From positions 1-64,000 of the forward strand of contig NZ_JAEDAK010000021.1 of assembly GCF_016093275.1 (NCBI RefSeq): a stretch of 64,000 nucleotides of DNA, written 5' to 3'. Each line of letters opens with the position of its first letter. The stretch's first letter is position 1. This stretch comes from Inhella proteolytica. Its GTDB lineage: Bacteria; Pseudomonadota; Gammaproteobacteria; Burkholderiales; Burkholderiaceae_C. Shown one piece after another: positions 4,364 to 18,350 of the stretch. The translations under genes were made by a program, and so were the position numbers. Below the pieces are notes generated by a model. The model did no database searches and was not told the DNA's origin. It was given only the letters and a program-made list of their open reading frames with translations.

Positions 4364-5905
4364 ATGAACCTGAACCGCATGCGCGTGGGCCAGCGTCTGG
4401 GCCTGGGCTTTGGTTTGATGGCGCTGCTGCTGGCGCTCAGCCTCGGGGTGGCGATCCAGCGCCTGAACCGCATGGAGGCCGCCAAGGTCGAGGTGCTGGA
4501 GCTGGAGCGCCGGGCCGCCCTGGCCGAGGCCTGGATGAAGAACACCGAGCTGAACGCCAACCGCGCGCTGGCGATCGCCAAATCGGGCTACCACGAGGCG
4601 GTGGTCAAGCACTTCGATCCGCTGGTCAAGGCCACCACGGCCACCATCAGCGAGATCCAGAAGCGCATCGAAGCCGCGGTGAGCAGCGAGCGCGGCAAGG
4701 CCCTGATGGGCGAGATCGCCGAGCGCCGCAAGGACTACATCGCCAAGCGCAACCAGATCTTCGACCAGCTCAAGGGCGGCGACCTGGAGGGTGGGCAGCA
4801 GAAGGTCGACACCGACATGCTGCCCGCCGTGCAGGCCTATGTGAAGGCGCTGGAGAACTTCGTCGGCTTCCAGCGCGAGCTGGCCCAGGCGGCCACCGCA
4901 CGCGCCGCCGCCGACAAGGCCTTTGCCCAGACCGTGCTGGTGCTGATGCTGGTGGTCTGCCTGGCCGTGGCTTTCGGTGCGGGCTGGCTCATCACCCGCT
5001 CCGTCACCGGCCCGCTGCAGGCTGCGCGACGCCGCACCGAGGCGATCGCCAACGGCGATCTCACCGTGGACGTGGTGGCCGAAGGCGCCGACGAACTGGC
5101 CGAGATGCTGCGCAGCCTGGAACAGATGCAGCAGCGCCTGCGCAGCCTGGTGGGCGAGATCCGCTCCGGCACCGAGGGCATCAACACCGCCTCGCACGAG
5201 ATCGCCAGCGGCAGCCAGGACCTTTCCCAGCGCACCGAGCAGGCCGCCAGCAATCTGCAGCAGACCGCCAGCTCGCTCGAACAGATCACCACCACCGCCC
5301 GCCACGCGGCCGATTCCGCCGCCCAGGCCAACCAGCTGGCCGGCAGCGCCGCCCAGGTGGCGCGCCGCGGCGGCGCGGTGGTGCACCAGGTGGTCGAGAC
5401 CATGGGCGCCATCAACGACAGCTCACGCCGCATTGCCGACATCATCGGCACCATCGACGGCATCGCCTTCCAGACCAACATCCTGGCGCTGAACGCCGCC
5501 GTGGAGGCCGCGCGCGCCGGCGAGCAGGGCCGCGGCTTCGCGGTGGTCGCCGGCGAAGTCCGCCTGCTGGCCCAGCGCAGCGCCGAGGCCGCCAAGGAGA
5601 TCAAGACCCTGATCGGCAACAGCGTCGAGCGCGTGGAGGCCGGCAGCAAGCTCGTCGGCGAGGCCGGCGCCACCATGCAGGAGATCGTCGACAGCGTGCA
5701 GCGCGTCACCGACATCATTGGCGAAATCAGCGCCGCCACGCAGGAGCAAAGCTCGGGCATCGGCCATGTGAACGAGGCGGTGACGCAGCTCGATCAGGTG
5801 ACGCAGCAGAATGCCGCGCTGGTCGAGCAGTCGGCCGCTGCGGCCGAAAGCCTCAGCGAGCAGGCCACTCGGGTCGCCGCCTCCGTCGCCGTCTTCAGAA
5901 CTTGA
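4364..5905 (+). CDS. Methyl-accepting chemotaxis protein
   Basis: The 513-aa protein has TM1 at about residues 10-32, a four-helix-bundle-type periplasmic domain, TM2 at about 187-210, a HAMP region, and a long signalling coiled coil. The highly conserved hairpin tip ([20 protein letters not shown]) is near residues 365-385. The start chosen ([10 protein letters not shown]) follows a GGGGAG ribosome binding site and places TM1 at the N-terminus. An in-frame start 51 nt upstream would only add a low-complexity leader. No CheR-binding pentapeptide is seen at the C-terminus (ends VAVFRT). The ligand is unknown, and no other che genes are in the window. Confidence 0.95.
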
Positions 5906-5906
5906 T

Positions 5907-6383
5907 ATGTCCGCACGCTGGAAGCCCAATGTCACTGTCGCCGCCTACATCGAACACGAGGGCAAGCTGCTCTGGGTGCGCGAGCTGACCTCGCGCGACG
6001 GCATCCGCATCAACAACGCCGCCGGCCATCTGGAAGCCGATGAAGACCCGCTGCAGGCGGTCTGCCGCGAGGTGCTCGAAGAGACCGGTCGGCCCTTCCG
6101 GCCCGAAGCCATCCTGGGCTTCTACCTGAGCGACACCCGCTTCACCGACGGCGAACCGGTGCGCTTCCTGCGCATCGCCTTCGTCGGCACCGTGGGCGCG
6201 GTGGAACGCGAGCAGCTCGATGAGCCCATCATCGAAACCCTGCTGCTCAGCGCCGCCGAGATCCGCGCGCGCCCGCACGAGCTGCGCTCGCCGCTGATGC
6301 TGCGCGGGCTCGATGACTACGAAGCGGGGCGGCGCTTTCCGCTCGATCTGATCCGCGTGCAACCCGAACCCGGCCGCCCATGA
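5907..6383 (+). CDS. nudJ: NudJ-like Nudix hydrolase
   Basis: The 158-aa protein starts MSARWKPNVTVAAYIEHEG and contains a complete Nudix box, G-x5-E-x7-REVLEETG, with the first part GHLEADE shared with NudJ (YmfB) proteins. NudJ enzymes hydrolyse nucleoside di/triphosphates and thiamine pyrophosphate intermediates; the substrate here is not proven. The start lies one base after the chemoreceptor stop and overlaps the next gene by ATGA, so it is translationally linked to the DGPF protein. The longer upstream in-frame start lies inside the chemoreceptor gene and is rejected. Confidence 0.85.
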   Translation: MSARWKPNVTVAAYIEHEGKLLWVRELTSRDGIRINNAAGHLEADEDPLQAVCREVLEETGRPFRPEAILGFYLSDTRFTDGEPVRFLRIAFVGTVGAVEREQLDEPIIETLLLSAAEIRARPHELRSPLMLRGLDDYEAGRRFPLDLIRVQPEPGRP

Positions 6384-6727
6384 GCTACGCCCTCGTCATC
6401 CTCGAAGCACATGGCCAGCGCGCCGAACGCGGCCTGGAGGGCGGCCAGGCCGCCTATGCGGCCATGCTGGCCTTTGCCGAACAACTGAAGGCGCGCGGCC
6501 AGCTCGTCATGACCCAGGCGCTCAGCACCGAGCAGACGCGGGTGCGCCGCAGCGCTGGCGGTGTGGAGGTGCTGGACGGCCCCTTCATCGAGGCCAAGGA
6601 ACTGGTGGGCGGCATCTTCCTGCTGCAGAACGTCAGCCGCGAGCAGGCGCTGCAGATCGCCGCCGAATGCCCGGCCGCCGCTTGGGCCACCGTGGAAGTG
6701 CGCGCCCTCGGCCCCTGTTTCACCTGA
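6380..6727 (+). CDS. YciI/DGPF family protein
   Basis: This 115-aa protein has the DGPF signature at residues 66-69 within VEVLDGPFIEAKELVGG, which defines the YCII/DGPF family (dimeric alpha-beta, ferredoxin-like fold). Such proteins are the characteristic partners of ECF42 sigma factors, and a second copy at 12712 sits directly in front of one. It overlaps the Nudix gene by ATGA. Its own biochemical role is unknown. The predicted ECF42 promoter lies just after it, so this gene itself may be read from the upstream transcript. Confidence 0.85.
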   Translation: MSYALVILEAHGQRAERGLEGGQAAYAAMLAFAEQLKARGQLVMTQALSTEQTRVRRSAGGVEVLDGPFIEAKELVGGIFLLQNVSREQALQIAAECPAAAWATVEVRALGPCFT

Positions 6728-6730
6728 GTG

Positions 6731-6757
6731 TGTCGAAACCGGCGGGCCTGCTTCGTC
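6731..6757 (+). promoter_or_regulatory. Predicted ECF42 sigma factor promoter, copy 1
   Basis: TGTCGA (6731-6736) and CGTC (6754-6757) are separated by 17 nt and followed by GTA. The same motif pair with identical spacing recurs at 12652 and 14808, upstream of the ECF42 locus. TGTCGA in the -35 region and CG(A/T)C in the -10 region are the elements I recall for ECF42 targets. It would drive the DUF1801 and reductase-fold genes. Confidence 0.7.
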
Positions 6758-6779
6758 GTACCCGAACCGGAGCCCCGCC

Positions 6780-7199
6780 ATGCACCCCGACATCGCCCAG
6801 TACCACGCCCAGCTTCCCGAAGGCCAGCGCGCCCTCTGCGAAGGCCTGGCCCAGGCCATCGATGCGCAGCTGCACGGCGCCGAGAGCAAGGTCTGGCATG
6901 CCCATCCGGTCTGGTTCCTGGCCGGCAACCCCATCGTCGGCTACAGCCTGCAGAAGCCCGGCATCCGCCTGATGTTCTGGAGCGGCGCCGGTTTCGACGA
7001 GCCGGCGCTGAACGTTCTGGGCGCCAAGTTCAAGGATGCCTCGGTGTTCTTCAACACCTGGGGCGAGGTGGACCCCGAGGCCTTGCGGCGCTGGCTGGAC
7101 AAGGCCGCGCGCATCCAGTGGGACTACCAGAACCTGGTGCGCCGCAAGGGCCGGCTGGAACGCCTGCCCACCCCTGCTGAAACCGGACTTTCGCCATGA
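6780..7199 (+). CDS. DUF1801 domain protein
   Basis: The 139-aa product resembles DUF1801 (YdhG-like) proteins, seen in the segments KVWHAHPVWFLAGNPIVGYS and ALNVLGAKFKDASVFF. The fold is frataxin-like in known members, but the function is undefined. The start ATG 6780 was chosen because it follows GGAGCCCC and gives the usual N-terminus; upstream in-frame sequence is out-of-frame reading of the DGPF gene. It is 23 nt downstream of the predicted ECF42 promoter and overlaps the next gene by ATGA. This makes it a likely member of a local ECF42 regulon, a group in which small YciI, DUF1801 and VOC proteins recur. Confidence 0.8.
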   Translation: MHPDIAQYHAQLPEGQRALCEGLAQAIDAQLHGAESKVWHAHPVWFLAGNPIVGYSLQKPGIRLMFWSGAGFDEPALNVLGAKFKDASVFFNTWGEVDPEALRRWLDKAARIQWDYQNLVRRKGRLERLPTPAETGLSP

Positions 7200-7843
7200 C
7201 ACAGATCCGCGTCGACTGCTATTCCATTTCCGCCGATGGCTTCGGTGCGGGCCCGGCGCAAAGCCTGGAGCACCCGCTCGGCCGCGGGGGCACGCAGCTG
7301 CATGAATGGGTGTTCCCCACGCGCGCCTTTCGCACCCGGGTGCTGGGACTGGCAGGCGGCGAAACCGGCGTGGACGACGGCTTCGCCGCGCGTGGCTTCG
7401 AGAACCTGGGTGCCTGGATCCTCGGCCGCAATATGTTCGGCCCGCTGCGCGGACCCTGGCCGGATGAAAGCTGGCGCGGCTGGTGGGGCGACAGCCCGCC
7501 CTATGGCGTGCCGGTGTTCGTGCTGACCCACCACGCGCGGCCCAGCCTGGAGATGCAGGGCGGCACCGTCTTCCACTTCGTCACCGCTGGCTTCGAGGCC
7601 GCGCTGCAGCAGGCCCGTGCCGCCGCCGCGGGGCGCGACGTGCGCATCGGCGGCGGTGCGGCCACCTTGCGCCAGGCCCTGCAGGCGGGTTCGATCGACC
7701 GCCTGCACATCGCCCAGTCCCCCGTGCTGGTGGGGCAGGGCGAGCCGCTGTGGGCCGGGCTGGACCTGCCGGCGCTGGGCTATCGAATGACCGAGGTGGT
7801 GCCCGGCGAGCGCGCCACGCATCTGCGCATCGAACGCGGCTGA
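7196..7843 (+). CDS. Dihydrofolate reductase-family (RibD C-terminal-like) protein
   Basis: The 215-aa protein has the RibD C-terminal/dihydrofolate reductase-like pattern. It begins TQIRVDCYSISADGFGAGP, has GAWILGRNMFGP near residue 75, VPVFVLTHHARP near residue 102, and the nucleotide-binding motif VRIGGGAATLRQAL near residue 143. Family members are NADPH-dependent reductases of unknown substrate and are common next to DGPF/ECF42 genes. It overlaps DUF1801 by ATGA, so it is co-translated from the predicted ECF42 promoter. Confidence 0.82.
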   Translation: MTQIRVDCYSISADGFGAGPAQSLEHPLGRGGTQLHEWVFPTRAFRTRVLGLAGGETGVDDGFAARGFENLGAWILGRNMFGPLRGPWPDESWRGWWGDSPPYGVPVFVLTHHARPSLEMQGGTVFHFVTAGFEAALQQARAAAAGRDVRIGGGAATLRQALQAGSIDRLHIAQSPVLVGQGEPLWAGLDLPALGYRMTEVVPGERATHLRIERG

Positions 7844-7859
7844 ATCTGGCTGAAAGCGC

Positions 7860-7890
7860 TTGACCCTCACGCAGCGTGAGGCTCCATGAT
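7860..7890 (+). promoter_or_regulatory. MerR-type promoter with 19-bp spacer and palindromic operator
   Basis: A TTGACC -35 (7860-7865) and a CATGAT -10 (7885-7890) are separated by 19 bp, the overlong spacer typical of MerR-activated promoters. The spacer holds the perfect palindrome CCTCACGCAGCGTGAGG (7865-7881). The next gene is a MerR regulator, so this is its probable autoregulated promoter, also serving the exporter behind it. The placement rules out a MerR start at 7876. Confidence 0.85.
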
Positions 7891-7914
7891 CCGGGCTCGC
7901 TCACCGCCCCGCTC

Positions 7915-8643
7915 ATGGACTACACCGTCGGCGAACTCGCCAAGAAGGCCGGACTGACCGTCCGCACCCTGCACCACTATGAACAGCTCGGCCTGCTCGT
8001 GCCCTCGGGGCGCAGCGAGGCCGGCTACCGCCTCTACAGCGCGGCCGACGTGCGCCGCCTGCACCGCGTGCTGGCCTACCGACAGTCCGGCCTGGCGCTG
8101 AAGGACATCGCCGCCCTGCTGCAGACCGACAGCCCGCCGCTGCGCGAGCTGCTGGAGCGCCAGATCGCGCAGGTGGAGGGCGAGATCGAGCGCCGCCAGC
8201 GCCTGCTGCGCGCGCTGCGCCATGTGGCCAAGCAGGCGCATGAAGGCGAGGAGGGCCTGAGCGAGCACCTGCTCAGCGCCATGAGCCTGATGCGCCTGAT
8301 GGAGCAGCACTTCAGCCCGGCGGAGCTGACCGTGCTGGCGCGCCGCCGGGCCCAGTTGGGCGAGCAGAAGATCGAGGCGCTGGAGGCCGAATGGCCGGCG
8401 CTGATCCGCCGCGCGCAGGCGCTGCTGGACGGCGGCACGCCGCCCAGCGACCCCGAGGTGGCCGGCATCGCCAGGCGCTGGCGCGAACTGGCCCAGCTCT
8501 TCATCGGCGACCAGCCGCAATTCCGAGCCAAGGTCCAGGCCATGTACGCCCAGGACGGCGACCTGCAGCGCAAGACCGGCGTGACCCCGCAGCTGATTGC
8601 CTACCTCCGGCAGTCCCTTCCCCAAGAGAAACCGACGCCATGA
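7915..8643 (+). CDS. MerR-family regulator with TipAS-like effector domain
   Basis: The 242-aa protein has an N-terminal MerR winged helix (residues 1-70: MDYTVGELAKKAGLTVRTLH, then YEQLGLL). A coiled-coil dimerisation helix follows, then a C-terminal region resembling the TipAS drug-sensing domain (ARRWRELAQLFIGDQPQF, then AMYAQDG). I chose ATG 7915 because an earlier in-frame ATG at 7876 lies inside the promoter palindrome. TipAL-like regulators bind hydrophobic compounds and activate exporters. The ATGA overlap with the MFS gene supports a drug-responsive regulator-pump pair. Confidence 0.88.
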   Translation: MDYTVGELAKKAGLTVRTLHHYEQLGLLVPSGRSEAGYRLYSAADVRRLHRVLAYRQSGLALKDIAALLQTDSPPLRELLERQIAQVEGEIERRQRLLRALRHVAKQAHEGEEGLSEHLLSAMSLMRLMEQHFSPAELTVLARRRAQLGEQKIEALEAEWPALIRRAQALLDGGTPPSDPEVAGIARRWRELAQLFIGDQPQFRAKVQAMYAQDGDLQRKTGVTPQLIAYLRQSLPQEKPTP

Positions 8644-9932
8644 ACCCCGAAGTCCTGTTATCCGGCCCCGCGCCGGAGGCCCCGCCACGTCTGCTTGCGA
8701 ACCGCAACTTCCGCTGGCTGCTCGGCGGCGGCCTGCTCTCCATGCTGGGCGACCAGTTCACGCTGATCGCCTTGCCCTGGCTGGTGCTGCGGCTGACCGG
8801 CGACCCCGTCACCCTGGGCCTGGTGCTGGCCGTGATGGGCCTGCCGCGCGCCGCCTTCATCCTGGTGGGCGGCGCGCTGGTGGACCGCCATTCGCCGCAG
8901 CACGTGCTGCTGCTCACCAAGCTGCTCAATGCCCTGTGGGTGGGCCTGCTGGCGGTGCTGGTGCTCAGCGGGGCGCTGCAGCTGGGGGTGGTCTACGCGC
9001 TGGCGCTGGCCATCGGCCTCACCACCGCCTTCAGCTACCCCGCAGGCAGCTCCATCCTGCCGCTGAGCCTGCCGGCGCCGCTGCTGCGCGCCGCCAATTG
9101 CAGCTTCATGGCGCTGCGCCAGTTCAGTGTGCTCATCGGCCCGCTGCTGGCCGGCGGGCTGATTGCGCTGCTGGCCGAGCCCGGCGCCCGCGGCCTGCAG
9201 GACGCGCGCGGCCTGGGCCTGGCCTTCGGCTTCGATGCACTGAGCTTTCTGGTCTCCAGCTGGACCCTGAAGCAGGTGCGCCTGCTGCAACGCCCCGCGC
9301 CGGCCCACGCCCCGGTGGGGGCGGCCATTGCCGAGGCCCTGCGCCACTGCTGGCAGGACGTCGAGCTGCGCACCCTCTGCCTCTACTTCGCCGCCATCGG
9401 CTTCTTCGTCGGCGGGCCCATCCAGGTGGCGCTGCCGGTGCTGGCGCAGCAGCAGCTACCGGGCGGCGCCGCGGCCCTGGGCCTGCTGCTGGCCGGGCAT
9501 GGCGGCGGCGTGCTGGTGGGCATGGCGCTCTCGGGCCTGCGGCGCCGGTTCGGCCTCGGCAATCTGGGGGCCACCGTGCTGCTGATTGACGCCATCGCTG
9601 GCTGTGTGTTCCTGCCCTTCGGCCATATCCACGCGGCCTGGCAGGGCGTATTGCTGCTGGCGCCGCTGGGGGCCATGGCCGGCTTCGTGCAGGTGGCCGT
9701 CTACACCTGGATGCAGCAGCGCGTGCCGCCGGCCATGCTGGGCCGCGCCATGGGCCTGTTCATGTTCCTGTTCATGGGCGTCGCGCCGCTGGCCGCCGCC
9801 GCCGCGGGGGCCGGCCTGGCGCTGTGGGGGCCGCAGGTGCTGTTCACCTTCAGCGGCCTGGCCCTGCTCGGGCTGGTGGCACTGGGGCTGCTGTTCACGC
9901 CGCTGCGGCGGCTGCGGGACGCGCCGGCCTGA
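8640..9932 (+). CDS. MFS transporter, DHA3/MefA-like efflux pump
   Basis: The 430-aa polytopic protein has about 10-12 transmembrane helices. Its start region FRWLLGGGLLSMLGDQFTLI matches the helix-1 motif of the DHA3 (macrolide-efflux-like) branch, and RHSPQ after helix 2 fits the A-like loop. The start is the ATG overlapping the MerR stop (ATGA). Upstream in-frame sequence is a shadow of merR and is rejected. The pump probably exports the compound sensed by the MerR/TipAS protein; the substrate is unknown. Confidence 0.88.
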   Translation: MNPEVLLSGPAPEAPPRLLANRNFRWLLGGGLLSMLGDQFTLIALPWLVLRLTGDPVTLGLVLAVMGLPRAAFILVGGALVDRHSPQHVLLLTKLLNALWVGLLAVLVLSGALQLGVVYALALAIGLTTAFSYPAGSSILPLSLPAPLLRAANCSFMALRQFSVLIGPLLAGGLIALLAEPGARGLQDARGLGLAFGFDALSFLVSSWTLKQVRLLQRPAPAHAPVGAAIAEALRHCWQDVELRTLCLYFAAIGFFVGGPIQVALPVLAQQQLPGGAAALGLLLAGHGGGVLVGMALSGLRRRFGLGNLGATVLLIDAIAGCVFLPFGHIHAAWQGVLLLAPLGAMAGFVQVAVYTWMQQRVPPAMLGRAMGLFMFLFMGVAPLAAAAAGAGLALWGPQVLFTFSGLALLGLVALGLLFTPLRRLRDAPA

Positions 9933-9947
9933 GCCGGGGCGGCGCGC

Positions 9948-10238
9948 TCATTGCCGTTCCCCTCCGCGCGGTGATCCGAAGCGCGCCGCCGAGCGCTCCC
10001 GCGCCTTGGCGGCCTCTTCCTCGCGGTTCTTCGGCGTGGCCGTGGTGTGCAGGGCCGCAATCAACTCCCGCGTGCTTGCCGCCACCTGCTCCACCGCGCG
10101 CTCGAACGCAGCCTCATTGGCCTTGCTGGGCACGTTGAAGCCGCTGAGCTTGCGCACGAACTGCAGCGCCGCGTCGCGGATCTCCAGCTCGGTGGCCGGG
10201 GGCTCGAAGTTGAAGAGGGTGCGGATGTTGCGGCACAT
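9948..10238 (-). CDS. DUF2277 protein
   Basis: The 96-aa protein starts MCRNIRTLFNFEPPATELEI, the near-invariant start of DUF2277, followed by ALQFVRKLSGF and PSKANEAAFERAV. The C-terminal third is charged and variable. The start was set at this MCRNI because the longer in-frame extension is low-complexity and unconserved. The gene is convergent with the MFS gene, with 15 nt between them. The family has no known function. Confidence 0.88.
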   Translation of the reverse strand: MCRNIRTLFNFEPPATELEIRDAALQFVRKLSGFNVPSKANEAAFERAVEQVAASTRELIAALHTTATPKNREEEAAKARERSAARFGSPRGGERQ

Positions 10239-10434
10239 GGGGGCGGTCTTGCGAAGGGGTTTGGGCATTCTGCGCAGAACGGCGGCGTCGCCGCGGAGCG
10301 AGAACTGGACAGCGTAGGACTTTCCAGAGCGGCAGTTCGAAGCGCCTTCTGACTCTGAGCCTGCGGTACAACACGTCAGCGGCGGTTCGGCCAATTGGGC
10401 TGCAACGTCAAATCCAGAACTACGGGAGAGAACG

Positions 10435-10932
10435 ATGGGAATGGTGGGTTGTTTTGCTGCCCTGCCAGCCGCGCAATTGGCGCAGCTGCAATCTGGTGAG
10501 CGATCGATTGAAGACTTCCTGTATCCAGATGACGGCGATGGGGAACCCGAGCACAGCATCGATGTGGATAAGGCATGGCACGGCCTGCACTACCTACTGA
10601 CCGGCACCGCCTGGGGGGGCGACGCGCCTCTGTGTTTGGCCGTGCTGGGAGGCGAGGAGTTCGGTCCTGATGTGGGCTATGGCCCAGCTCGCGCGCTCAC
10701 GGCTACGCAGGTGGCCAGCGTGGCTGCCGCACTGGCCGGATTGCCGGCCGACAAGCTGGCGAGTCGCTACCAGCCTGCCGATATGGCAAAGCTGGAGATT
10801 TATCCCGACGTCATCTGGGTGCGCGACGGAGCCGAGGCGTTGGACTACCTGCTGGAGAACTACCAGCAGTTGGTTGAGTTCTATCGTGACGCGGCGGCGC
10901 GGGGGGATGCGGTCATTCAATGGCTGAGCTGA
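10435..10932 (+). CDS. DUF1877 (YfbM-like) protein
   Basis: The 165-aa protein begins MGMVGCFAALPAAQLAQL, has the pattern SIDVDKAWHGLHYLLTGTAW, and later GPARALTATQVASVAAAL, which are hallmarks of DUF1877/YfbM. Its function is unknown. A GGGAGA site precedes the start. Base composition here and in the next gene is visibly less GC-rich than in neighbours, consistent with acquisition by transfer. The 196-nt gap to DUF2277 holds the divergent promoters and nothing else I recognise. Confidence 0.85.
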   Translation: MGMVGCFAALPAAQLAQLQSGERSIEDFLYPDDGDGEPEHSIDVDKAWHGLHYLLTGTAWGGDAPLCLAVLGGEEFGPDVGYGPARALTATQVASVAAALAGLPADKLASRYQPADMAKLEIYPDVIWVRDGAEALDYLLENYQQLVEFYRDAAARGDAVIQWLS

Positions 10933-10999
10933 ACGCGTGCTGTTCGACACTGTCCTCAGAGCACTGCAGCAGTCAACAAAGATTTGCCGGTGATTGAAC

Positions 11000-12541
11000 A
11001 TGCAGCAGCCCATTCAAGAGGCTTCTTCACCTGATTCAAAGGTGTGGGCCGGCGACTTGTTTCAACGTCAGGACTTCGCAGATTTCCTGACGGGATACCT
11101 TGTGGCGAAGTCATGCCCGCCTGATGAAAAAGGGCATCGGCCGTTCTCTTTGGCCCTGAATGCAGGCTGGGGCAGGGGAAAGACCTTCTTTGTGAGTCGG
11201 TGGGCTGAACACCTATCGATCCAGTCTCCCCGCCACCCGGTGATGCACTTCAATGCTTGGGCCTCCGACGTAGCTGCCGACCCACTTGTTGCCTTCATGG
11301 CGGCCTTCAAGGTCGCGCTCGACCGGGAAGTCGACAAACTTGAATCGACGGCAGAAGCCAAGTTCGCGATTCAGGCGGGTGTGGAGAAGGTTGTTTCTGG
11401 TGTTCGACGAGCCTACCTGCCGGCCGCAAAAGTGGCCTTGAAGGGGGTTGTGAAGAAGCTAAGCGGCGTCGCACTTGATGAAGTCAGCGAGGCCTTGACC
11501 ACAGGCGATGTGAACGTCGACGCTGGGCGGATTGAAGAGCTAAAGGCCGAAGGGCGCGATGCGGCCGAGAAGGGATTGGACGAGTTTTTCAAGAAGGCCT
11601 TGGCCGAGCAAAGTGATTTGCCACAGGTCATTTCAAGCCTCCGCATCGCGATTGAATCGACCCTTGCCCGCCTCGCTCAGGAAGGCAATCTGAAGCTCCC
11701 GATGTTCGTGTTTGTCGACGAGCTGGATCGCTGTCGGCCACCTTTCGCCATCGCACTGCTTGAAGGCATCAAGCATCTATTTGGGGTCAGAGGTGTTTGC
11801 TACGTCATTTCGACAAACCTCGATCAACTTGCGAAGGCAACCGGGGCGGTTTACGGATCGGGGTTCGACGGCGGCGGATACCTGAAGCGGTTCTTTGACG
11901 TGCAGTGCGAGTTGCCAACGCCGTCATCCTTGAGGTTCGCGCAGTTCCTGTTTTCCACCAGCCCAGTGATTGCTGCCGCAAGTGCAAACCTCGGCCATGG
12001 GCTGCCTGAAGGCGGGTTCACAGATTGCGACTGGGGTTCAGCTGAGCACTCGGCCCTTTGCTGGGTGGCCGATGAGTTCGGGCTCGATCTGCGTTCTCAA
12101 GAGCAAGTTTTTGGAGCTATTGAGGCGAGTGTCAGCACGCTCCGCGATGGCCGCATCCATTTGATTTGGTTGGCCACGTTGTGTGCGATTCGGCACAAGC
12201 ACCCAGCGGTATTCGACGACATCACACGTCCGAACGGGTCGAACCTTACAAATGCGTGGGGTGTGATGGGTATTGCTGGCAGGCCACATTCCTACATGTC
12301 GTACGACTCACAAGCTGGGCGCCACGTACAGCGCACTGTGACCTTGCTAGAAGTGGCAGAGAGGTACTACAGGAATGCATTTAAGTGCGAGAAGCTAGAG
12401 AAGCGCACCCCTGCGCATGGGCTGGACTATCCGAATCACTGGCTTCAGCATCTTTCGTCGCTTGGTAGTCACTCCGAATTGTTCCGCTACTTCGCTGCCG
12501 TAAGTAGCGCAGGCTACCTGTCCAGGAGCGGAGCAGGCTAG
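11000..12541 (+). CDS. KAP-family P-loop NTPase
   Basis: The 513-aa protein carries a Walker A motif GWGRGKT at about residues 56-62, the conserved HFNAWASD segment at about 83-90, and a Walker B MFVFVDELDRCRP at about 235-247. This is the KAP NTPase arrangement. KAP proteins are patchily distributed, often plasmid- or phage-related, and some take part in anti-phage defence. No transmembrane helix is obvious between the motifs, unlike many KAP members. ATG 11000 is preferred over a TTG six bases upstream because GGTGA is correctly spaced. Lower GC than surrounding genes suggests transfer. No partner gene or integrase is visible. Confidence 0.85.
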   Translation: MQQPIQEASSPDSKVWAGDLFQRQDFADFLTGYLVAKSCPPDEKGHRPFSLALNAGWGRGKTFFVSRWAEHLSIQSPRHPVMHFNAWASDVAADPLVAFMAAFKVALDREVDKLESTAEAKFAIQAGVEKVVSGVRRAYLPAAKVALKGVVKKLSGVALDEVSEALTTGDVNVDAGRIEELKAEGRDAAEKGLDEFFKKALAEQSDLPQVISSLRIAIESTLARLAQEGNLKLPMFVFVDELDRCRPPFAIALLEGIKHLFGVRGVCYVISTNLDQLAKATGAVYGSGFDGGGYLKRFFDVQCELPTPSSLRFAQFLFSTSPVIAAASANLGHGLPEGGFTDCDWGSAEHSALCWVADEFGLDLRSQEQVFGAIEASVSTLRDGRIHLIWLATLCAIRHKHPAVFDDITRPNGSNLTNAWGVMGIAGRPHSYMSYDSQAGRHVQRTVTLLEVAERYYRNAFKCEKLEKRTPAHGLDYPNHWLQHLSSLGSHSELFRYFAAVSSAGYLSRSGAG

Positions 12542-12589
12542 CAGTTGGGTATTCGAGGTCTGGCCAATGCAGACAGCTTCTAGCGCGGG

Positions 12590-12615
12590 AGTGCCCCCAG
12601 TACGGGCTACTTTTT
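12590..12615 (+). terminator. Probable terminator after the KAP gene
   Basis: The arms AGTGCCC and GGGCTACT pair with a single-base bulge around a short loop and run directly into a T-tract. The site is about 50 nt after the KAP stop and upstream of the ECF42 promoter, so it would insulate that locus. Confidence 0.5.
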
Positions 12616-12651
12616 CTCAAGGGCCTCGCCGCGGTGTGTGCTGGTCTGACT

Positions 12652-12678
12652 TGTCGAAACGCGCCCGCCCCATCCGTC
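12652..12678 (+). promoter_or_regulatory. Predicted ECF42 sigma factor promoter, copy 2 (autoregulatory)
   Basis: TGTCGA (12652-12657) and CGTC (12675-12678) are 17 nt apart and followed by GTA, matching copies 1 and 3. The site lies 33 nt upstream of the DGPF gene that overlaps the ECF42 sigma gene. It would therefore give positive autoregulation of the sigma factor, its DGPF partner and the VOC gene. Confidence 0.75.
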
Positions 12679-12711
12679 GTACCCCACACACCCTCACGAC
12701 AGGAGCCCCCC

Positions 12712-13143
12712 ATGCCCCGCTACATGATCCAAGTCCGCGCCACCCCCAGCAGCGAGGCCGGCGAGTTTCCCGATGACCCGACGCTGGTCACGCGCATGCT
12801 GGCCTTCCATGACGAGATGGCCAAGGCCGGGGTGCTGCTGGATGGTGCCGGCCTGCAGCCCTCCAGCCAGGGTTTCCGGGTGCGCTACACGGCGCAGGGC
12901 GAACCCGCGGTGATCGATGGCCCCTTTGCCGAGGCCAAGGAGCTGATCGCGGGCTACACGCTCATCGAAGTGCGCTCGCGCGAGGAGGCGCTGGCCTGGG
13001 CGCGGCGCTTCCCCTCGCCCTTTCCGGGCCAGGAATGCGCGATCGAGGTGCGGCCGCTGTTCTGCGAGACGCTGGACTGCCCGCCCGAGGAGGCCGAGCG
13101 CCAGCTGCGTGAGCAACTGGCCCAGATCCGCCAGGGCGGATGA
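12712..13143 (+). CDS. YciI/DGPF family protein, ECF42 partner
   Basis: The 143-aa protein MPRYMIQVRATPSSEAGEF has the DGPF signature at residues 69-72 (AVIDGPFAEAKELIAGY), then a helix SREEALAWARRFP and an acidic C-terminal tail. It overlaps the sigma gene by ATGA, the standard arrangement of ECF42 loci. The start follows an AGGAG site. Longer in-frame starts would lie inside the promoter. DGPF proteins have been proposed to act in the same stress pathway as ECF42, but no enzymatic activity is established. Confidence 0.92.
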   Translation: MPRYMIQVRATPSSEAGEFPDDPTLVTRMLAFHDEMAKAGVLLDGAGLQPSSQGFRVRYTAQGEPAVIDGPFAEAKELIAGYTLIEVRSREEALAWARRFPSPFPGQECAIEVRPLFCETLDCPPEEAERQLREQLAQIRQGG

Positions 13144-14411
13144 GTGCTGCAGAGACGGTCCAGGCGGTCTGGCGGCTCGAAGCCGCCAAGATCGTCGGCG
13201 CGCTGACGCGCCTGACGCACGACCTGGCCCTGGCCGAGGACTGCGCGCAGGACGCCTTGCTGGCGGCGCTGGAGCATTGGCCGCGTGACGGCCTGCCACG
13301 CAACCCGGCCGCCTGGCTGATGACCACCGCCAAGCACCGCGCGCTCGACCGCCTGCGCCATGGCCAGATGGCCGCGCGTGAGCAGGGCGCGCTCGGGCAG
13401 GACCTGGATGCGAGGCGCGACATGATGGCCCCCGACACGCTCGAAATCATGCTGGCCGACGAGGCCGATCCGCTCGGTGATGACGTGCTCAAGCTGCTCT
13501 TCATCGCCTGCCACCCGGGCCTGGCGCGCGAGGCGCAATGGGCGTTGACGCTGCGCCTGGTCTGCGGCCTCACCACGGCAGAGATCGGCCGCGCGCTGCG
13601 TGCCAAGGAGGCCACGGTGGCGCAGCGCATCAGCCGCGCCAAGGCGCAGCTGGAGAAGCTCGATGCCCGCTTCGAGCTGCCGGATGCGGCCGAGCGCCAG
13701 GCCCGCCTGGCCCAGGTGCTGACCGTGCTCTACCTGATGTTCAACGAGGGCTACACGGCCACCGCCGGGCCGGACTGGATGCGCCCCGAGCTGTGCCTGG
13801 AAGCGCTGCGCCTGACGCGCATGCTGGCCGCACTCTGCCCGGGCGAGGCCGAGGCCTGCGGGCTGCAGGCGCTGATGGAGATCCAGGCCTCGCGCCTGCC
13901 GGCGCGCCTGGACGCGGCCGGCAAGCCCGTGCTGCTGCTGGACCAGGATCGCCGCCGCTGGGACCCGCTGCTGATCCGCCGCGGCCTGGCCGCACTGGCG
14001 CGCGCCCAGGGCCTGACGGCGCCGGGTTCGTTCACGCTGCAGGCCGCCATTGCCGCCTGCCATGCACGCGCCGCGCGGGCGGTGGACACGGACTGGGCCG
14101 CCATCGTGGCCGGCTACGACGAGCTGTTGGCCCTGCAGCCCGGCAACCCGGTGGTGGCGCTGAACCGCGCCGTGGCCGTGGGCATGGCCTTCGGGCCCGG
14201 CGCGGCGCTGCCCCTGGTGGAAGACTTGAGCGCCCAGGCCGCGCTGCAGGGCTACCCCTGGCTGCCCAGCGTGCACGCCGACCTGCTGATCAAGCTGGAG
14301 CGCCCGGCCGAGGCGGCCGCCGCGCTGCGGCAGGCGATTGCCTGGACCGACAACGAGGCCGAGCGCCAGCTGCTGGCCGAACGCCTGCAATCCCTGGAAG
14401 GGCGGCCCTGA
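13140..14411 (+). CDS. ECF42-group RNA polymerase sigma factor
   Basis: The 423-aa protein has sigma region 2 at about residues 15-75 (LAEDCAQDALLAALEHW, then KHRALDRLRH) and region 4 at about 118-172 (GLTTAEIGRALRAKEATV, then AQRISRAKAQL). A C-terminal extension of about 240 residues follows, helical and TPR-like, with LQPGNPVVALNRAVAVGMA near the end. This length and extension identify the ECF42 group, which lacks a classical anti-sigma factor and is thought to be controlled by the extension. It is coupled to the DGPF gene upstream and abuts a VOC gene downstream. Three matching promoter motifs in the window suggest its direct targets. Confidence 0.93.
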   Translation: MSAAETVQAVWRLEAAKIVGALTRLTHDLALAEDCAQDALLAALEHWPRDGLPRNPAAWLMTTAKHRALDRLRHGQMAAREQGALGQDLDARRDMMAPDTLEIMLADEADPLGDDVLKLLFIACHPGLAREAQWALTLRLVCGLTTAEIGRALRAKEATVAQRISRAKAQLEKLDARFELPDAAERQARLAQVLTVLYLMFNEGYTATAGPDWMRPELCLEALRLTRMLAALCPGEAEACGLQALMEIQASRLPARLDAAGKPVLLLDQDRRRWDPLLIRRGLAALARAQGLTAPGSFTLQAAIAACHARAARAVDTDWAAIVAGYDELLALQPGNPVVALNRAVAVGMAFGPGAALPLVEDLSAQAALQGYPWLPSVHADLLIKLERPAEAAAALRQAIAWTDNEAERQLLAERLQSLEGRP

Positions 14412-14801
14412 ATGCAACTCGACCACCTGACCGTGCCCGCCGCCGATGCGCGCACCGCCGCCACCCGCCTGGCCGAGCTGCTGGGCCTGCCCCATGGGCC
14501 AGCGGCGGTCGGGCCCTTCCATGCCGTCTATGTCAGCGACAGCCTGACGCTGGACTTCGACACCTGGCCCGAGCCCGTGCCGGCGCTGCATTACGCGCTG
14601 CGCGTCTCCGAGGCGGAGTTCGATGCCCTGGTGGCGCGCCTGCGTGCCGCCGGCGTGGGCTTGCGCAGCCGCCCGCATGGCCCCGAGGATGGGCAGGTCG
14701 GCGAACACGGCGGCGGCCGGCTGGTGTACTGGAACGATCCGGCTCCGCATGTCTGGGAGCTGCTAACCGTTTCTTACGCACGGGCGCCCGCGTCCGATTG
14801 A
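14412..14801 (+). CDS. VOC-fold (glyoxalase-like) protein
   Basis: The 129-aa protein starts MQLDHLTVPAADARTAATRL, followed by DFDTWPEPVPALHYALRV and VYWNDPAPHVWELLTV. This is the paired beta-alpha-beta-beta-beta pattern of the vicinal oxygen chelate superfamily, with candidate metal ligands His4, His67 and a C-terminal Glu. It begins immediately after the sigma stop with no gap, so it belongs to the same transcript. The substrate is unknown. Confidence 0.85.
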   Translation: MQLDHLTVPAADARTAATRLAELLGLPHGPAAVGPFHAVYVSDSLTLDFDTWPEPVPALHYALRVSEAEFDALVARLRAAGVGLRSRPHGPEDGQVGEHGGGRLVYWNDPAPHVWELLTVSYARAPASD

Positions 14802-14807
14802 TGCGGC

Positions 14808-14834
14808 TGTCGAAACCGGGCAGGCTCGAACGTC
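14808..14834 (+). promoter_or_regulatory. Predicted ECF42 sigma factor promoter, copy 3
   Basis: TGTCGA (14808-14813) and CGTC (14831-14834) are 17 nt apart and followed by GT. The site sits in the 64-nt gap between the VOC gene of the sigma operon and the next VOC gene, so it would start a second transcript for the four genes ending at 16877. Confidence 0.75.
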
Positions 14835-14865
14835 GTCCCACACCACCACCCCTCAGGAGAGAGCC

Positions 14866-15318
14866 ATGTCCCGCGTCAGCACCTATCTGAACTACCCCGG
14901 CACCACCGAGGCCGCCTTCGCGCTCTACAAGCAGGTGTTCGGCACCGACTACGAGGTGCCCCCGGTGCGCTTCGGCAGCATGCCGGCCCAGCCGGGCCAG
15001 CCCGAGATGTCGGCCGCCGACCAGCAGAAGATCCTGCATGTGGCGCTGCCCATCCTGGGTGGCCACGTCATCATGGGCACCGATGTCATCGAAGGCCCGG
15101 GCTGCGGCAAGTACGAGCCGGGCAACCACATCACCCTGAACCTGGAACCCGACAGCCGCGCCGAGGCCGACCGCCTGTATGCCGCGCTGAGCGAAGGCGG
15201 CAGCGCCGACGCCCCGATGGCCGACATGTTCTGGGGCGCCTACTGGGGCGTGCTGGTGGACCGCTTCGGCCTGCGCTGGATGATCAACGTCGATCACGCC
15301 AAGGATCCGGCGAAGTAA
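14866..15318 (+). CDS. VOC-family protein, PhnB-like
   Basis: The 150-aa protein begins MSRVSTYLNYPGTTEAAFAL and contains LGGHVIMGTDVIEG and ADMFWGAYWGVLVDRFGLRW, the pattern of PhnB/YjdN-type VOC proteins (3-demethylubiquinone methyltransferase-like fold). It follows a GGAGAGAG ribosome binding site, 32 nt after predicted ECF42 promoter copy 3. Members of this family recur in ECF42 and ECF41 neighbourhoods. The catalytic role is unknown. Confidence 0.88.
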   Translation: MSRVSTYLNYPGTTEAAFALYKQVFGTDYEVPPVRFGSMPAQPGQPEMSAADQQKILHVALPILGGHVIMGTDVIEGPGCGKYEPGNHITLNLEPDSRAEADRLYAALSEGGSADAPMADMFWGAYWGVLVDRFGLRWMINVDHAKDPAK

Positions 15319-15337
15319 TCCGCATCAGGAGACCGTC

Positions 15338-15769
15338 ATGGCCATCAAGCTGGACTATGTGATCGAGATCCGCGCGCCGCGCGCGCGGGTGTGGACGCAG
15401 ATGCTGGGTGACGCCGGCTACCGCGACTGGACCGCCGCCTTCTGCGAGGGCTCGTACTACGAGGGCCGCTGGGAGACCGGTGCCGACATGCGCTTTCTCG
15501 GCCCCTCGGGCGACGGCATGCGCGCGCGCATCGAGGTCGCGCGGGAGCCCGAGTACGTCAGCATCGAGCACCTGGGCGAACTGGTGGGCGGCGCGCCCAA
15601 GGAATGTGCCGACTGGCAGGGCGTGTTCGAGCGCTACTGGCTCAAGGACCAGGGCGGCGCCACGCGCATCGAGGTCGAGCTGAACCAGGTGCCGGAGGCC
15701 TACGTCGAGATGATGAACACGATGTGGCCGGCCGCGCTGCAGCGGCTCAAGAAGGCGTGTGAGACATGA
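15338..15769 (+). CDS. SRPBCC (START/Bet v1-like) protein
   Basis: The 143-aa protein MAIKLDYVIEIRAPRARVWT fits the SRPBCC helix-grip fold: an N-terminal strand, then a helix with the PRARVW motif, several beta strands, and a long C-terminal helix (MMNTMWPAALQRLKKACE). Such proteins bind hydrophobic ligands. It overlaps the GST gene by ATGA and is preceded by an AGGAG site, so it is part of the predicted third ECF42 transcript. Confidence 0.85.
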   Translation: MAIKLDYVIEIRAPRARVWTQMLGDAGYRDWTAAFCEGSYYEGRWETGADMRFLGPSGDGMRARIEVAREPEYVSIEHLGELVGGAPKECADWQGVFERYWLKDQGGATRIEVELNQVPEAYVEMMNTMWPAALQRLKKACET

Positions 15770-16425
15770 CGATGGAACTGTTCGCCCACCCCTTCTCGTC
15801 CTACTGCCAGAAGGTGCTGATCGCGCTGCGCGAGAAAGGCCTGGACTTCGAGCTGCGCCTGCTCGAACCCGACCAGACCGTCACCCAGGCCGAGTTCGCG
15901 CGCCTGTGGCCGCTGCAGCGCATGCCGCTGCTGCGCGCGGGCGAGACGGTGCTGATGGAGTCCACCCTCATCATCGAATGGCTGGACCTGCAGCATCCGG
16001 ATGCGCCGCGCCTGCTGCCGGCCGACCCGCAGGCCGCACTGCAGGTGCGTCTGTTCGATCGCCTGTTCGACCAGTACGTGATGACGCCGATGCAGAAGCT
16101 GGTGTTCGACTGCATCCGCCCGGCCGAGAAGCGCGACCCCCACGGCGTGGCCGAGGCCCATGCGCTGCTGGAAAAGGCCTATGCCTGGCTGGACGGCCAA
16201 CTGCCCGCGGCCGGCTGGGCGGTGGGCCAGTGCTTCAGCCTGGCCGACTGCGCCGCCGCGCCTTCACTGTTCTACGCCGACTGGGTGCACGAGATCCCGC
16301 CCGAGCTGCACCGCCTGCGCGCCTACCGCCAGCGCCTGCTGGCCCACCCTTCGGTCGCCCGCGCGGTGGACGAAGGCCGCCCCTACCGCAGCTGGTTTCC
16401 ACCGGGTGCCCCTGACCGAGACTGA
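15766..16425 (+). CDS. Glutathione S-transferase family protein
   Basis: The 219-aa protein has an N-terminal thioredoxin-fold domain (residues 1-80: LFAHPFSSYCQKVLIALREK, MPLLRAGETV, and the glutathione-binding MESTLIIEWLD). The helical C-terminal domain contains WAVGQCFSLADCAAAPSLF, the N-capping motif of GSTs. It probably conjugates or reduces an electrophile with glutathione. It is co-translated with the SRPBCC gene and lies 2 nt from the next SRPBCC gene, which supports a detoxification role for the ECF42 cluster. Confidence 0.92.
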   Translation: MTMELFAHPFSSYCQKVLIALREKGLDFELRLLEPDQTVTQAEFARLWPLQRMPLLRAGETVLMESTLIIEWLDLQHPDAPRLLPADPQAALQVRLFDRLFDQYVMTPMQKLVFDCIRPAEKRDPHGVAEAHALLEKAYAWLDGQLPAAGWAVGQCFSLADCAAAPSLFYADWVHEIPPELHRLRAYRQRLLAHPSVARAVDEGRPYRSWFPPGAPDRD

Positions 16426-16427
16426 CC

Positions 16428-16877
16428 ATGCCCAACACCCTGCAGATGCAACGCGTGCTGCGCGCCCCGCCCGAGCGCGTCTACAAGGCCTTCATCACGC
16501 CAAAAGCGATGGAGAAATTCCTGCCGCCCTATGGCTTCACGGCCGAGGTGCACGAACTCGACGCCCGCGTGGGCGGTCGCCACCGCGCCAGCTTCACGAA
16601 CTTCGGCACCGGCAGCAGCCACTCCTTCGGCGGCGAGTTCCTGGAGCTGGTGCCGGGCGAGCGTCTGCGCTATACGGACCGCTTCGACGACCCGAACCTG
16701 CCCGGCGAGATGCAGGTGACGCTGGAGTTCCGCAAGGTGCTCTGCGGCACCGAGCTGCGTGTGACCCAGGCCGGCATCCCCGACAGCATCCCGCTCGAGT
16801 TCTGCCACCTGGGCTGGCAGGAGACGCTGGACCAGCTGGCCCGGCTGGTGGAGCCGGAAATCCCGGACGGCGCCTGA
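16428..16877 (+). CDS. SRPBCC/AHSA1-like protein
   Basis: The 149-aa protein MPNTLQMQRVLRAPPERVYK carries the AHSA1-like motif RAPPERVYKAFITPKAMEKF and ends with ELRVTQAGIPDSIPLEFCHL then GWQETLDQLARLVEPEI. This is the typical activator-of-Hsp90-like domain seen in many stress operons. It is the last gene of the predicted ECF42-driven series, 63 nt before the TPR genes. Confidence 0.88.
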   Translation: MPNTLQMQRVLRAPPERVYKAFITPKAMEKFLPPYGFTAEVHELDARVGGRHRASFTNFGTGSSHSFGGEFLELVPGERLRYTDRFDDPNLPGEMQVTLEFRKVLCGTELRVTQAGIPDSIPLEFCHLGWQETLDQLARLVEPEIPDGA

Positions 16878-16940
16878 GCGCGCCTTGCCGCCGCAGCGCG
16901 CGTGCCAAGCGCGCCGCCGCGGCGCAGAATCGATCGGGCC

Positions 16941-18350
16941 ATGGTGTCCGACCCCGCGCTTCCCACGGCTCCGGCCGAACTGCCTGCCTGGCTGGCCGCG
17001 CAGCGCAGCGCCTACCGCCAGGCGCCGGAGCGGGCCGCCGAGCTGCTGACGCAGGCGTTGGCCCTGGCCCAGGGCGCGCTGGCCGGCCCTGCGCTGGCGG
17101 TTTGGGCCGGCACCCTGGCTCTGGAACTGCGCAGCCCGCTGCGCGCTGAAGCCCTGCTGGGGGCGGCCCTGGCGCAACCCGGGCTGGCAGATCAGGAACG
17201 GGCTTCGCTCGAATCCCTGGCCGCGCGCGCCGACATCCAGGCGCAGCGCCTGGATGCCGCACGCGAGCGCCTGCAGCGCGCCCTGCTGGCCGCTGAGCCG
17301 GGCAGCCTGGCCCAGGGCCTGGCGCTGGGTGGCAGTGCCCAGCTGGCCTACCGCGAAGGCGCGGCGGCGGCGGCCGTGGTGCAGGCGCGCCAGGCCCTGG
17401 CCCTGCTGGCCGGCCTGGAATGGGAAGGGCCCTGGGTGCAGCTGCATGCCTTGCTGGCCCTGGCGCAGCGCGAGCTGGGCGATGCCGAGGGCCGGCAGGC
17501 CAGCCTGCAGCGTGGCTGCGCACTGGCCCTGGCGCAGCAGCGCTGGGGCGAGGCGGCGCTGCTCACCACCGGTCTCTTCGATCTGGCGCTCGAACAAGGC
17601 CAGCCGCAGCAGGCCGAGCAGGCCCTGCAGCAGGCCAGCGCCTACGCGGCCCGCGAGCCCGGCGGCGCCGAGGCCCCGGGGCATGCGATGGTGGTGTTCA
17701 GCCGCGCGCGCTGGCTGGCGGCCCAAGGCGATTACGCCGCCGCCTGCGCGGGCCTGCGCGAGGCCCTGAGCCAGCAGCGCCACCGGCTCGCCGCCCATGA
17801 TCTGGCGGACCGGCTCAACCAGCTGGCCGATTGGCTGGTGCTGGCGGAACAGCCGACCGAGGCCCTGGCGGCGGCACGCGAGGCCCAGCAGCTCCAGCTC
17901 CTGCACGACGCACGCGCCGGGCGCCGCCATCTGGACCTGCTGCGCCAGCAATCGGACATCGAGCGCGCCGAGCAGGAGCGCGCCGCCAGCGAAACCCGCG
18001 TGCTGGCCCTGGAGCGCCACCACGCCGAGCTGGCCGCCACCCTGGCGCGCCAGCGCGCGCTGCACGACGAGCTGGTGGAGGCGCGCAAGCTGGCCGGCCT
18101 GGGGCAGCTGCTGATCAGCCTGGCGGGCCGGCTGGAGGCCCCCCTGCAGCGCGCCCGCCAGCAGCTTGAAGCCGGGCAGGCCAGCGACGAGGCGCTGCTG
18201 GAATCGGTGCGCCTGGGCGCGGGCGTCAGCCGCCGTGCGCTGCAGCAGGGCCTGCAGCAGACCCTGGCCGGTTGCCAGCACGCGCAGCGCGAGCTTGAGC
18301 AGGCGCTGGCCGAGGTGTCCAACTACCAGAGCCTGCGCGATGAGGTCTGA
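16941..18350 (+). CDS. TPR protein with degenerate kinase phosphoacceptor region
   Basis: The 469-aa protein is mostly TPR-like helical repeats (Ala/Leu/Gln-rich, about residues 10-330) followed by a coiled coil. It ends in a segment (LGQLLISLAGRLEAPLQRAR) that aligns with the phosphoacceptor region of the next gene (LGPLLAGVAHELNTPLGTAL). The His is replaced by Gly (residue 396) and no ATPase domain follows. It therefore looks like a duplicated kinase that lost catalysis, perhaps a dimer partner or sensor. The start is the ATG after the 63-nt gap. It overlaps the kinase gene by 11 nt (ATGAGGTCTGA). Confidence 0.8.
   Translation: MVSDPALPTAPAELPAWLAAQRSAYRQAPERAAELLTQALALAQGALAGPALAVWAGTLALELRSPLRAEALLGAALAQPGLADQERASLESLAARADIQAQRLDAARERLQRALLAAEPGSLAQGLALGGSAQLAYREGAAAAAVVQARQALALLAGLEWEGPWVQLHALLALAQRELGDAEGRQASLQRGCALALAQQRWGEAALLTTGLFDLALEQGQPQQAEQALQQASAYAAREPGGAEAPGHAMVVFSRARWLAAQGDYAAACAGLREALSQQRHRLAAHDLADRLNQLADWLVLAEQPTEALAAAREAQQLQLLHDARAGRRHLDLLRQQSDIERAEQERAASETRVLALERHHAELAATLARQRALHDELVEARKLAGLGQLLISLAGRLEAPLQRARQQLEAGQASDEALLESVRLGAGVSRRALQQGLQQTLAGCQHAQRELEQALAEVSNYQSLRDEV

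What the first reader, a model, noticed from the sequence alone, without database searches (positions are those of the whole stretch)
6731..14834. Three identically spaced ECF42 promoters define a local regulon around an ECF42 sigma factor
TGTCGA-N17-CGTC occurs at 6731-6757, 12652-12678 and 14808-14834, each 23-34 nt upstream of a start codon. The second copy precedes the DGPF-ECF42 operon, predicting positive autoregulation. The third precedes VOC-SRPBCC-GST-SRPBCC, and the first, about 6 kb away, precedes DUF1801 and a reductase-fold gene. Together they cover nine genes, mostly small ligand-binding or detoxifying proteins. Motif identity and spacing are read directly; the ECF42 promoter consensus is remembered from the Streptomyces work on this group.
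Basis: partly seen in the sequence, partly recalled or inferred. Interest (0 to 1): 0.8.

Follow-up and report, generated by a model that had tools for sequence, protein, structure and literature searches.

The report
ECF42 sigma factor and its promoters
Three near-identical start signals in this bacterial genome very probably let one alternative sigma factor switch on its own gene together with small detoxification-type genes, and two more copies elsewhere, one in front of a multidrug efflux pump, appear to belong to the same circuit; the kind of switch is already known.

Summary
TGTCGA-N17-CGTC occurs exactly three times in the window, at the stated places, against 0.11 expected. The shared sequence is longer than reported: TGTCGAAAC-N14-CGTCGT. 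The gene at 13140-14411 is the only DUF6596 (ECF42-type) sigma gene found in its genome. Across 200 genomes of the family, 42 of 43 with the strict motif carry such a gene, against 47 of 157 without it (p = 5e-17, relatedness not corrected). Counting only sites not within 10 kb of the gene, 34 of 35. In 80 named loci of several phyla, 85 sites at spacing 17 lie on the sigma gene's strand and 3 on the other. Mapped ECF42 promoters of Sinorhizobium meliloti have the same layout. It is a new member of a known kind. The regulon is not only local: two more sites precede a VOC gene and an AcrAB-type efflux pump. The pump site is intact in 8 of 27 orthologues, all in genomes with the sigma gene, just downstream of a conserved palindrome resembling the AcrR operator. 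That promoter is the new part. Nothing was tested experimentally; S. meliloti RpoE10 did not raise its own operon.

The parts
6731..6759 (+). promoter 1, TGTCGAAAC-N14-CGTCGT; three bases separate it from the YCII gene that ends at 6727
6780..7199 (+). DUF1801-like protein gene
   Evidence: 26.8 bits, cut-off 27.2
7196..7843 (+). RibD_C (reductase fold) gene, overlaps the previous one by 4 nt
12652..12680 (+). promoter 2, ahead of the YCII-sigma operon
12712..13143 (+). YCII (DGPF-type) protein gene
13140..14411 (+). ECF sigma factor with C-terminal DUF6596 (ECF42-type), the only one found in this genome
14412..14801 (+). VOC-like gene directly after the sigma gene (weak glyoxalase matches)
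14808..14836 (+). promoter 3; boxes kept in the same-genus genome G149 while much of the spacer differs
14866..15318 (+). YjdN-like VOC gene
   Evidence: 51.1 bits, below the equivalog cut-off of 122
15338..15769 (+). small protein, possibly SRPBCC; no Pfam or PDB match
15766..16425 (+). glutathione S-transferase-like gene
16428..16877 (+). AHSA1 (SRPBCC fold) gene

Best explanation
The gene at 13140-14411 encodes an ECF42-type sigma factor that has a C-terminal extension; no anti-sigma gene was seen among the annotated neighbours. RNA polymerase carrying it starts transcription from TGTCGA-N17-CGTC(GT) promoters. In the window it would transcribe its own YCII-sigma-VOC operon (promoter 2, positive feedback), the adjacent VOC-x-GST-AHSA1 operon (promoter 3) and a DUF1801-RibD_C pair 6 kb away (promoter 1). 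Outside the window it would also transcribe a VOC gene and an AcrAB/Ttg-type efflux pump, from a promoter just downstream of the presumed operator of the pump's repressor. The output looks like a chemical-stress (detoxification plus efflux) response. Shown here: the motif, its statistics, its link to the sigma gene and its conservation. Inferred: actual transcription, autoregulation, the signal and the physiological role.
For: Three exact sites against 0.11 expected. One DUF6596 sigma gene in the genome. Strict motif TGTCGAAA-N15-CGTCGT: 72 sites in 43 of 200 family genomes against 10 sites of the reversed control; 42 of the 43 have the sigma gene, against 47 of the 157 without the motif (p = 5e-17). 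48 of the 72 sites are not within 10 kb of a sigma gene on the same contig; they lie in 35 genomes, 34 with the sigma gene (p = 4e-13). First gene after the 72 sites: 24 YCII, 10 AHSA1, 10 VOC2-like, 2 RND adaptor, 4 other matches to the compared proteins (4 of these 50 are the own-genome sites matching themselves), 22 without such a match. In 80 named loci, 85 sites at spacing 17 on the sigma gene's strand against 3 on the other; 62 of 80 loci have a site within 3 kb on that strand, 1 of 80 on the other. Published S. meliloti RpoE10 promoters read TGTCGG-N17-CGTC (spacing by my count) ahead of ligand-binding and glyoxalase-like genes. Own-genome VOC site. Pump site.
Against: No transcription data. 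47 of 89 sigma-positive genomes lack the strict motif, among them G021 of the window's own genus with two DUF6596 genes; variant motifs may explain this but were not counted genome-wide. 18 of 80 named loci have no site within 3 kb on the sigma strand, a few perhaps because the contig ends there. The p values ignore relatedness and genome size. S. meliloti RpoE10 over-expression did not raise its own YCII-sigma operon. Within this genome the looser TGTCGR-N16-17-CGTCGT gives 7 sites against 6 reversed-control sites, so the distant VOC site rests on context. The DUF1801 gene has a relative at E <= 1e-30 in only 1 other of 200 genomes, so promoter 1 could not be footprinted. None of the five other same-genus genomes has the pump adaptor at E <= 1e-160. 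A review states that ECF-10 of Pseudomonas putida (ECF42 group) confers sensitivity to antibiotics, the opposite of what pump activation would predict.
Confidence: 0.88

Rival explanations
1. The three sites are real promoters, but another ECF sigma factor of this genome recognises them, or shares them.
For: The genome's other ECF sigma factors were not examined. One of 43 motif-bearing genomes (G005) has no DUF6596 sigma gene.
Against: 42 of 43 motif-bearing genomes have it, 34 of 35 for sites not near it, and sites crowd round this gene on its own strand in beta-proteobacteria and Firmicutes.
Confidence: 0.07
2. Only promoters 2 and 3 are functional; promoter 1 at 6731, and the distant VOC and pump sites, are look-alikes.
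For: Promoter 1 could not be footprinted. The looser motif is at chance level in this genome.
Against: The strict motif occurs only four times in 5 Mb. The pump site is intact in 8 of 27 orthologues, in seven of them 39-60 bases after the palindrome's start. A DUF1801 gene follows a site beside the sigma gene in Paenibacillus chibensis (L219). The VOC gene's relatives follow strict sites in other genomes.
Confidence: 0.15
3. The repeats are not promoters but operators for a co-encoded regulator, or copies carried along by gene duplication.
For: Identical boxes alone do not say which protein binds.
Against: Spacing of 17, close placement before start codons, diverged spacer at promoter 3 and agreement with the published S. 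meliloti RpoE10 promoters fit a promoter.
Confidence: 0.03

Closest known systems
Sinorhizobium meliloti RpoE10 (ECF42) regulon, PMC6180224 (passages and one section seen)
   Same: YCII-related gene followed by the sigma gene; promoters TGTCGG-N17-CGTC (spacing by my count); targets with ligand-binding and glyoxalase-like domains in two operons.
   Different: Here the first box is TGTCGA, the site before the sigma operon ends 33 bases before the start codon (in S. meliloti it overlapped the mapped start), and an efflux pump and a DUF1801-RibD_C pair are added. In S. meliloti the sigma operon itself was not raised by over-expression.
Streptomyces venezuelae ECF42 factors (Sven_0747, Sven_4377, Sven_7131; Liu 2018 not held, known here only from a review passage)
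   Same: Sigma factor whose activity needs a C-terminal extension of about 200 residues. The TGTCGA/CGTC-type promoter there is recalled, not read.
   Different: Other phylum; I did not see its target list.
Pseudomonas putida ECF-10 (ECF42 group; Tettmann 2014 not held)
   Same: ECF42 factor linked to antibiotic stress; a review table cites that paper for TtgABC efflux, though in a row headed sigma-70 (RpoD).
   Different: There the factor is said to confer sensitivity, and no direct promoter at the pump is described in the passages that I saw.

Membership tests
ECF42 sigma factors | sigma regions 2 and 4 of an ECF factor | tested here: met
   Sigma70_r2 and Sigma70_r4_2 over cut-off
ECF42 sigma factors | C-terminal extension of about 200 residues | tested here: met
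   423 aa with DUF6596 at 189-289, 121 bits; that DUF6596 marks ECF42 is recalled, and a survey finds DUF6596 in five sigma families of its own scheme
ECF42 sigma factors | TPR-rich extension | tested here: inconclusive
   no TPR family match in Pfam at E 0.001
ECF42 sigma factors | co-encoded YCII/DGPF gene upstream | tested here: met
   12712-13143 overlaps the sigma gene by 4 nt
ECF42 sigma factors | target promoter TGTCG[A/G]-N17-CGTC | tested here: met
   sequence match only:
ECF42 sigma factors | assignment by the published ECF group models | not testable with these tools
   the ECF classification models are not among the libraries
ECF42 sigma factors | sigma-dependent transcription of targets | not testable with these tools
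   needs experiment

The most novel reading that the evidence does not exclude
In this and four other genera the ECF42 factor drives a second, repressor-independent promoter of an AcrAB/Ttg-type multidrug efflux pump. The site sits a few tens of bases downstream of the presumed AcrR-type operator, so that a chemical-stress sigma factor bypasses the local repressor. The site is off consensus in a congener that lacks the sigma gene.
Probability: 0.6. Interest if true: 0.55.

Novelty: new member of a known kind. Interest (0 to 1): 0.42.

Why it matters
What ECF42 factors respond to and protect against is, as far as I could read, still unsettled. A concrete list of five sites, with gene families that recur across genera and an efflux pump among them, gives a directly testable role (defence against toxic organic compounds) and a simple promoter rule for finding the regulon in other genomes.

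Tried and rejected
The intermediate TGTCGR-N16-17-CGTCGT is also near chance (7 against 6), so only sites with supporting context were kept: the three in the window, the pump site and the VOC site. The other two (C6 = L008 and C23 = L025, spacing 16) were dropped after the listing, which shows open frames over the first and an ORF start 76 bases after the second.

A first scan of pump upstream regions used a faulty orientation rule and missed the known site; it was discarded and redone with tblastn. In one search the 30 best adaptors of the 200-genome set gave 5 perfect sites, 2 one-mismatch sites (G028 and G017, both without the sigma gene; the place of the G017 one relative to the palindrome was not checked) and 1 one-mismatch site on the opposite strand. 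In the 27 orthologues the association of an intact site with the sigma gene (8 of 23 with it, 0 of 4 without) is too small to count alone (no test was run), and one of the four (G357, L272) has only 165 bases of the scanned stretch. G350 has the sigma gene but an off-consensus site. The G288 site lies further from the palindrome (82 bases from its start, against 39-60) and may be chance. Two of the eight (G154, G127) differ from CGTCGT at one base after CGTC.

The first gene behind each of the 72 sites was picked by my own start-codon score and not checked by eye. Of the 22 unmatched ones, 21 were given to Pfam and L150 was not; 2 of the 21 had no match. The simple sigma-70 and terminator scan of window 5500-18500 found no promoter and 3 terminators (shuffle mean 5.4), so operon ends are not defined; it was not run on the pump region, and a sigma-70 promoter there is only presumed. 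Clade labels of the 80 loci were assigned by me from record titles. Literature: ECF42 with RND, no paper. That I found no printed ECF42-pump promoter rests on these searches of open-licence papers only. Papers: PMC6180224 passages and one section; PMC8999054, PMC8103513, PMC9322497, PMC11119718, PMC11256431 and PMC10880074 passages only; Liu 2018 and Tettmann 2014 not held. An earlier count said 25 exact palindromes; the recount is 24.
Full report
OBSERVATION. Each is followed by a start codon 23-34 bases on. The genome (4.98 Mb, 44 contigs) has one DUF6596 sigma gene, the one in the window.

GENES. Promoter 2 precedes YCII (12712), the sigma gene (13140) and a VOC-like gene (14412), with an overlap of 4 and no gap. 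Promoter 3 lies between that VOC-like gene and a YjdN-like VOC gene (14866), followed by an unassigned small protein (15338), a GST (15766) and AHSA1 (16428). Promoter 1 lies between a YCII gene (6380-6727) and DUF1801-RibD_C (6780, 7196). The unassigned gene had no Pfam match and no PDB match.

IS IT CHANCE? The loose motif is not informative genome-wide (43 against 89 reversed-control sites). The strict motif TGTCGAAA-N15-CGTCGT is: in 200 genomes of the family it occurs 72 times in 43 genomes, against 10 reversed-control sites. A DUF6596 gene is present in 89 of the 200. Of 43 motif-bearing genomes 42 have it, and of 157 without the motif 47 have it (p = 5e-17). This is not only because sites sit beside the gene: 48 of the 72 sites are not within 10 kb of it on the same contig (some may be nearer across contig ends), and they lie in 35 genomes, 34 of which have it (p = 4e-13). 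Neither p value corrects for relatedness or genome size.

WHAT FOLLOWS THE SITES. The first gene behind the 72 sites (four of them from the window's own genome, matching themselves) matches YCII in 24, AHSA1 in 10, the 14866 VOC gene or a distant relative in 10, the RND adaptor in 2, and RibD_C, the 15338 gene, the 14412 gene and DUF1801 in one each. Of the 22 others, 21 were scanned: glyoxalase or related VOC 5, YceI 4, BNR/sortilin-like 3, MFS 2, one each of GST, GyrI-like, DUF899, peptidase S51 and FAD-dependent aromatic hydroxylase, and 2 without a match.

ACROSS PHYLA. In 80 named loci (the best 80 of 585 confirmed, themselves a capped list), TGTCGA-CGTC at spacing 17 occurs 85 times on the sigma gene's strand and 3 times on the other. 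The other spacings from 12 to 23 give 0-13 on that strand, except 23 at spacing 20, probably CGTCGTC read twice. A site lies within 3 kb on the sigma gene's strand in 62 of 80 loci (29 of 33 betaproteobacterial, 28 of 34 Firmicutes, 3 of 6 actinobacterial, 2 of 7 others), and on the other strand in 1 of 80. The boxes at promoter 3 are kept in the same-genus genome G149 and, less exactly, in Inhella, while much of the spacer differs.

AGREEMENT WITH EXPERIMENT ELSEWHERE. Published promoters of the S. meliloti ECF42 factor RpoE10 read TGTCGG-N17-CGTC (spacing by my count), ahead of genes with hydrophobic-ligand-binding and glyoxalase-like domains. Over-expression raised those genes but not the YCII gene of the YCII-sigma operon.

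BEYOND THE WINDOW. Two further sites of this genome have good context. One (C41:51608-51636) is 67 bases before a VOC gene whose relatives follow strict sites in other genomes at up to 54% identity. The other (C22:335251-335279, minus strand) is about 60 bases before an HlyD-type adaptor followed by an AcrB-type transporter, divergent from a TetR repressor with the MAATS C-terminal domain. Among 27 close orthologues of that adaptor (12 genera, drawn from 399 genomes), 8 have both boxes intact at spacing 16-17 within 400 bases upstream, in genera g1, g8, g28, g111 and g127, all in genomes with the sigma gene. None of the four genomes without the sigma gene has it intact. One of those four (G028), of the same genus as two intact ones, carries an off-consensus version at the same place. 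The opposite strand gave no site with up to 3 of 14 mismatches in the same 27. A palindrome ACATACAT-N6-ATGTATGT, which I recall as like the AcrR operator, is present exactly in 24 of 27; in seven of the eight the site begins 39-60 bases after its start, in the eighth (G288) 82. I infer a second promoter that could bypass the repressor. Against it, 15 of 23 sigma-bearing orthologues lack an intact site, and the five other genomes of the window's own genus have no such adaptor at that threshold.

MECHANISM. Most likely a one-component-like switch: the sigma factor's C-terminal extension gates its activity, an unknown chemical signal releases it, and it amplifies itself and turns on small ligand-binding, conjugating and exporting proteins. 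The extension's role in ECF42 factors is from a review passage; the signal and physiology are inference. Against the efflux reading, the same review says that P. [quoted passage not shown]

ORGANISM. Not named. A same-family genome (G154) has a contig of 923393 bases, the length of a Pelomonas sp. BJYL3 contig, and the nearest named sigma relative returned is in Inhella crocodyli (69%), so the window probably belongs to the Burkholderiales.

VERDICT. It is a new member of a known kind; the extra interest lies in the conserved efflux-pump promoter.

Noticed in passing
own genome C22:335251-335279 (-), loci L024 and L159: Strict ECF42-type site before an AcrA/AcrB-type efflux operon, just downstream of a palindrome like the AcrR operator; intact in 8 of 27 orthologues.
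   Followed up: yes
own genome C41:51608-51636 (+), locus L282: TGTCGAAT-N15-CGTCGT 67 bases before a VOC gene.
   Followed up: partly
5901-6727: NUDIX gene overlapping a second YCII gene that ends three bases before promoter 1; no strict site in front of this pair.
   Followed up: no
7876-9932: MerR regulator with a TipAS drug-recognition domain followed by an MFS transporter, directly after the DUF1801-RibD_C pair.
   Followed up: no
10435-12541: DUF1877 gene and a KAP P-loop NTPase gene between promoters 1 and 2.
   Followed up: no
L204, L205, L209, L220 and others (Firmicutes loci): In Firmicutes ECF42 loci the site 1.4-2.4 kb upstream often precedes a gene that looks like an alpha/beta hydrolase; one of them, L204, was confirmed by Pfam on its first 160 residues.
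   Followed up: partly
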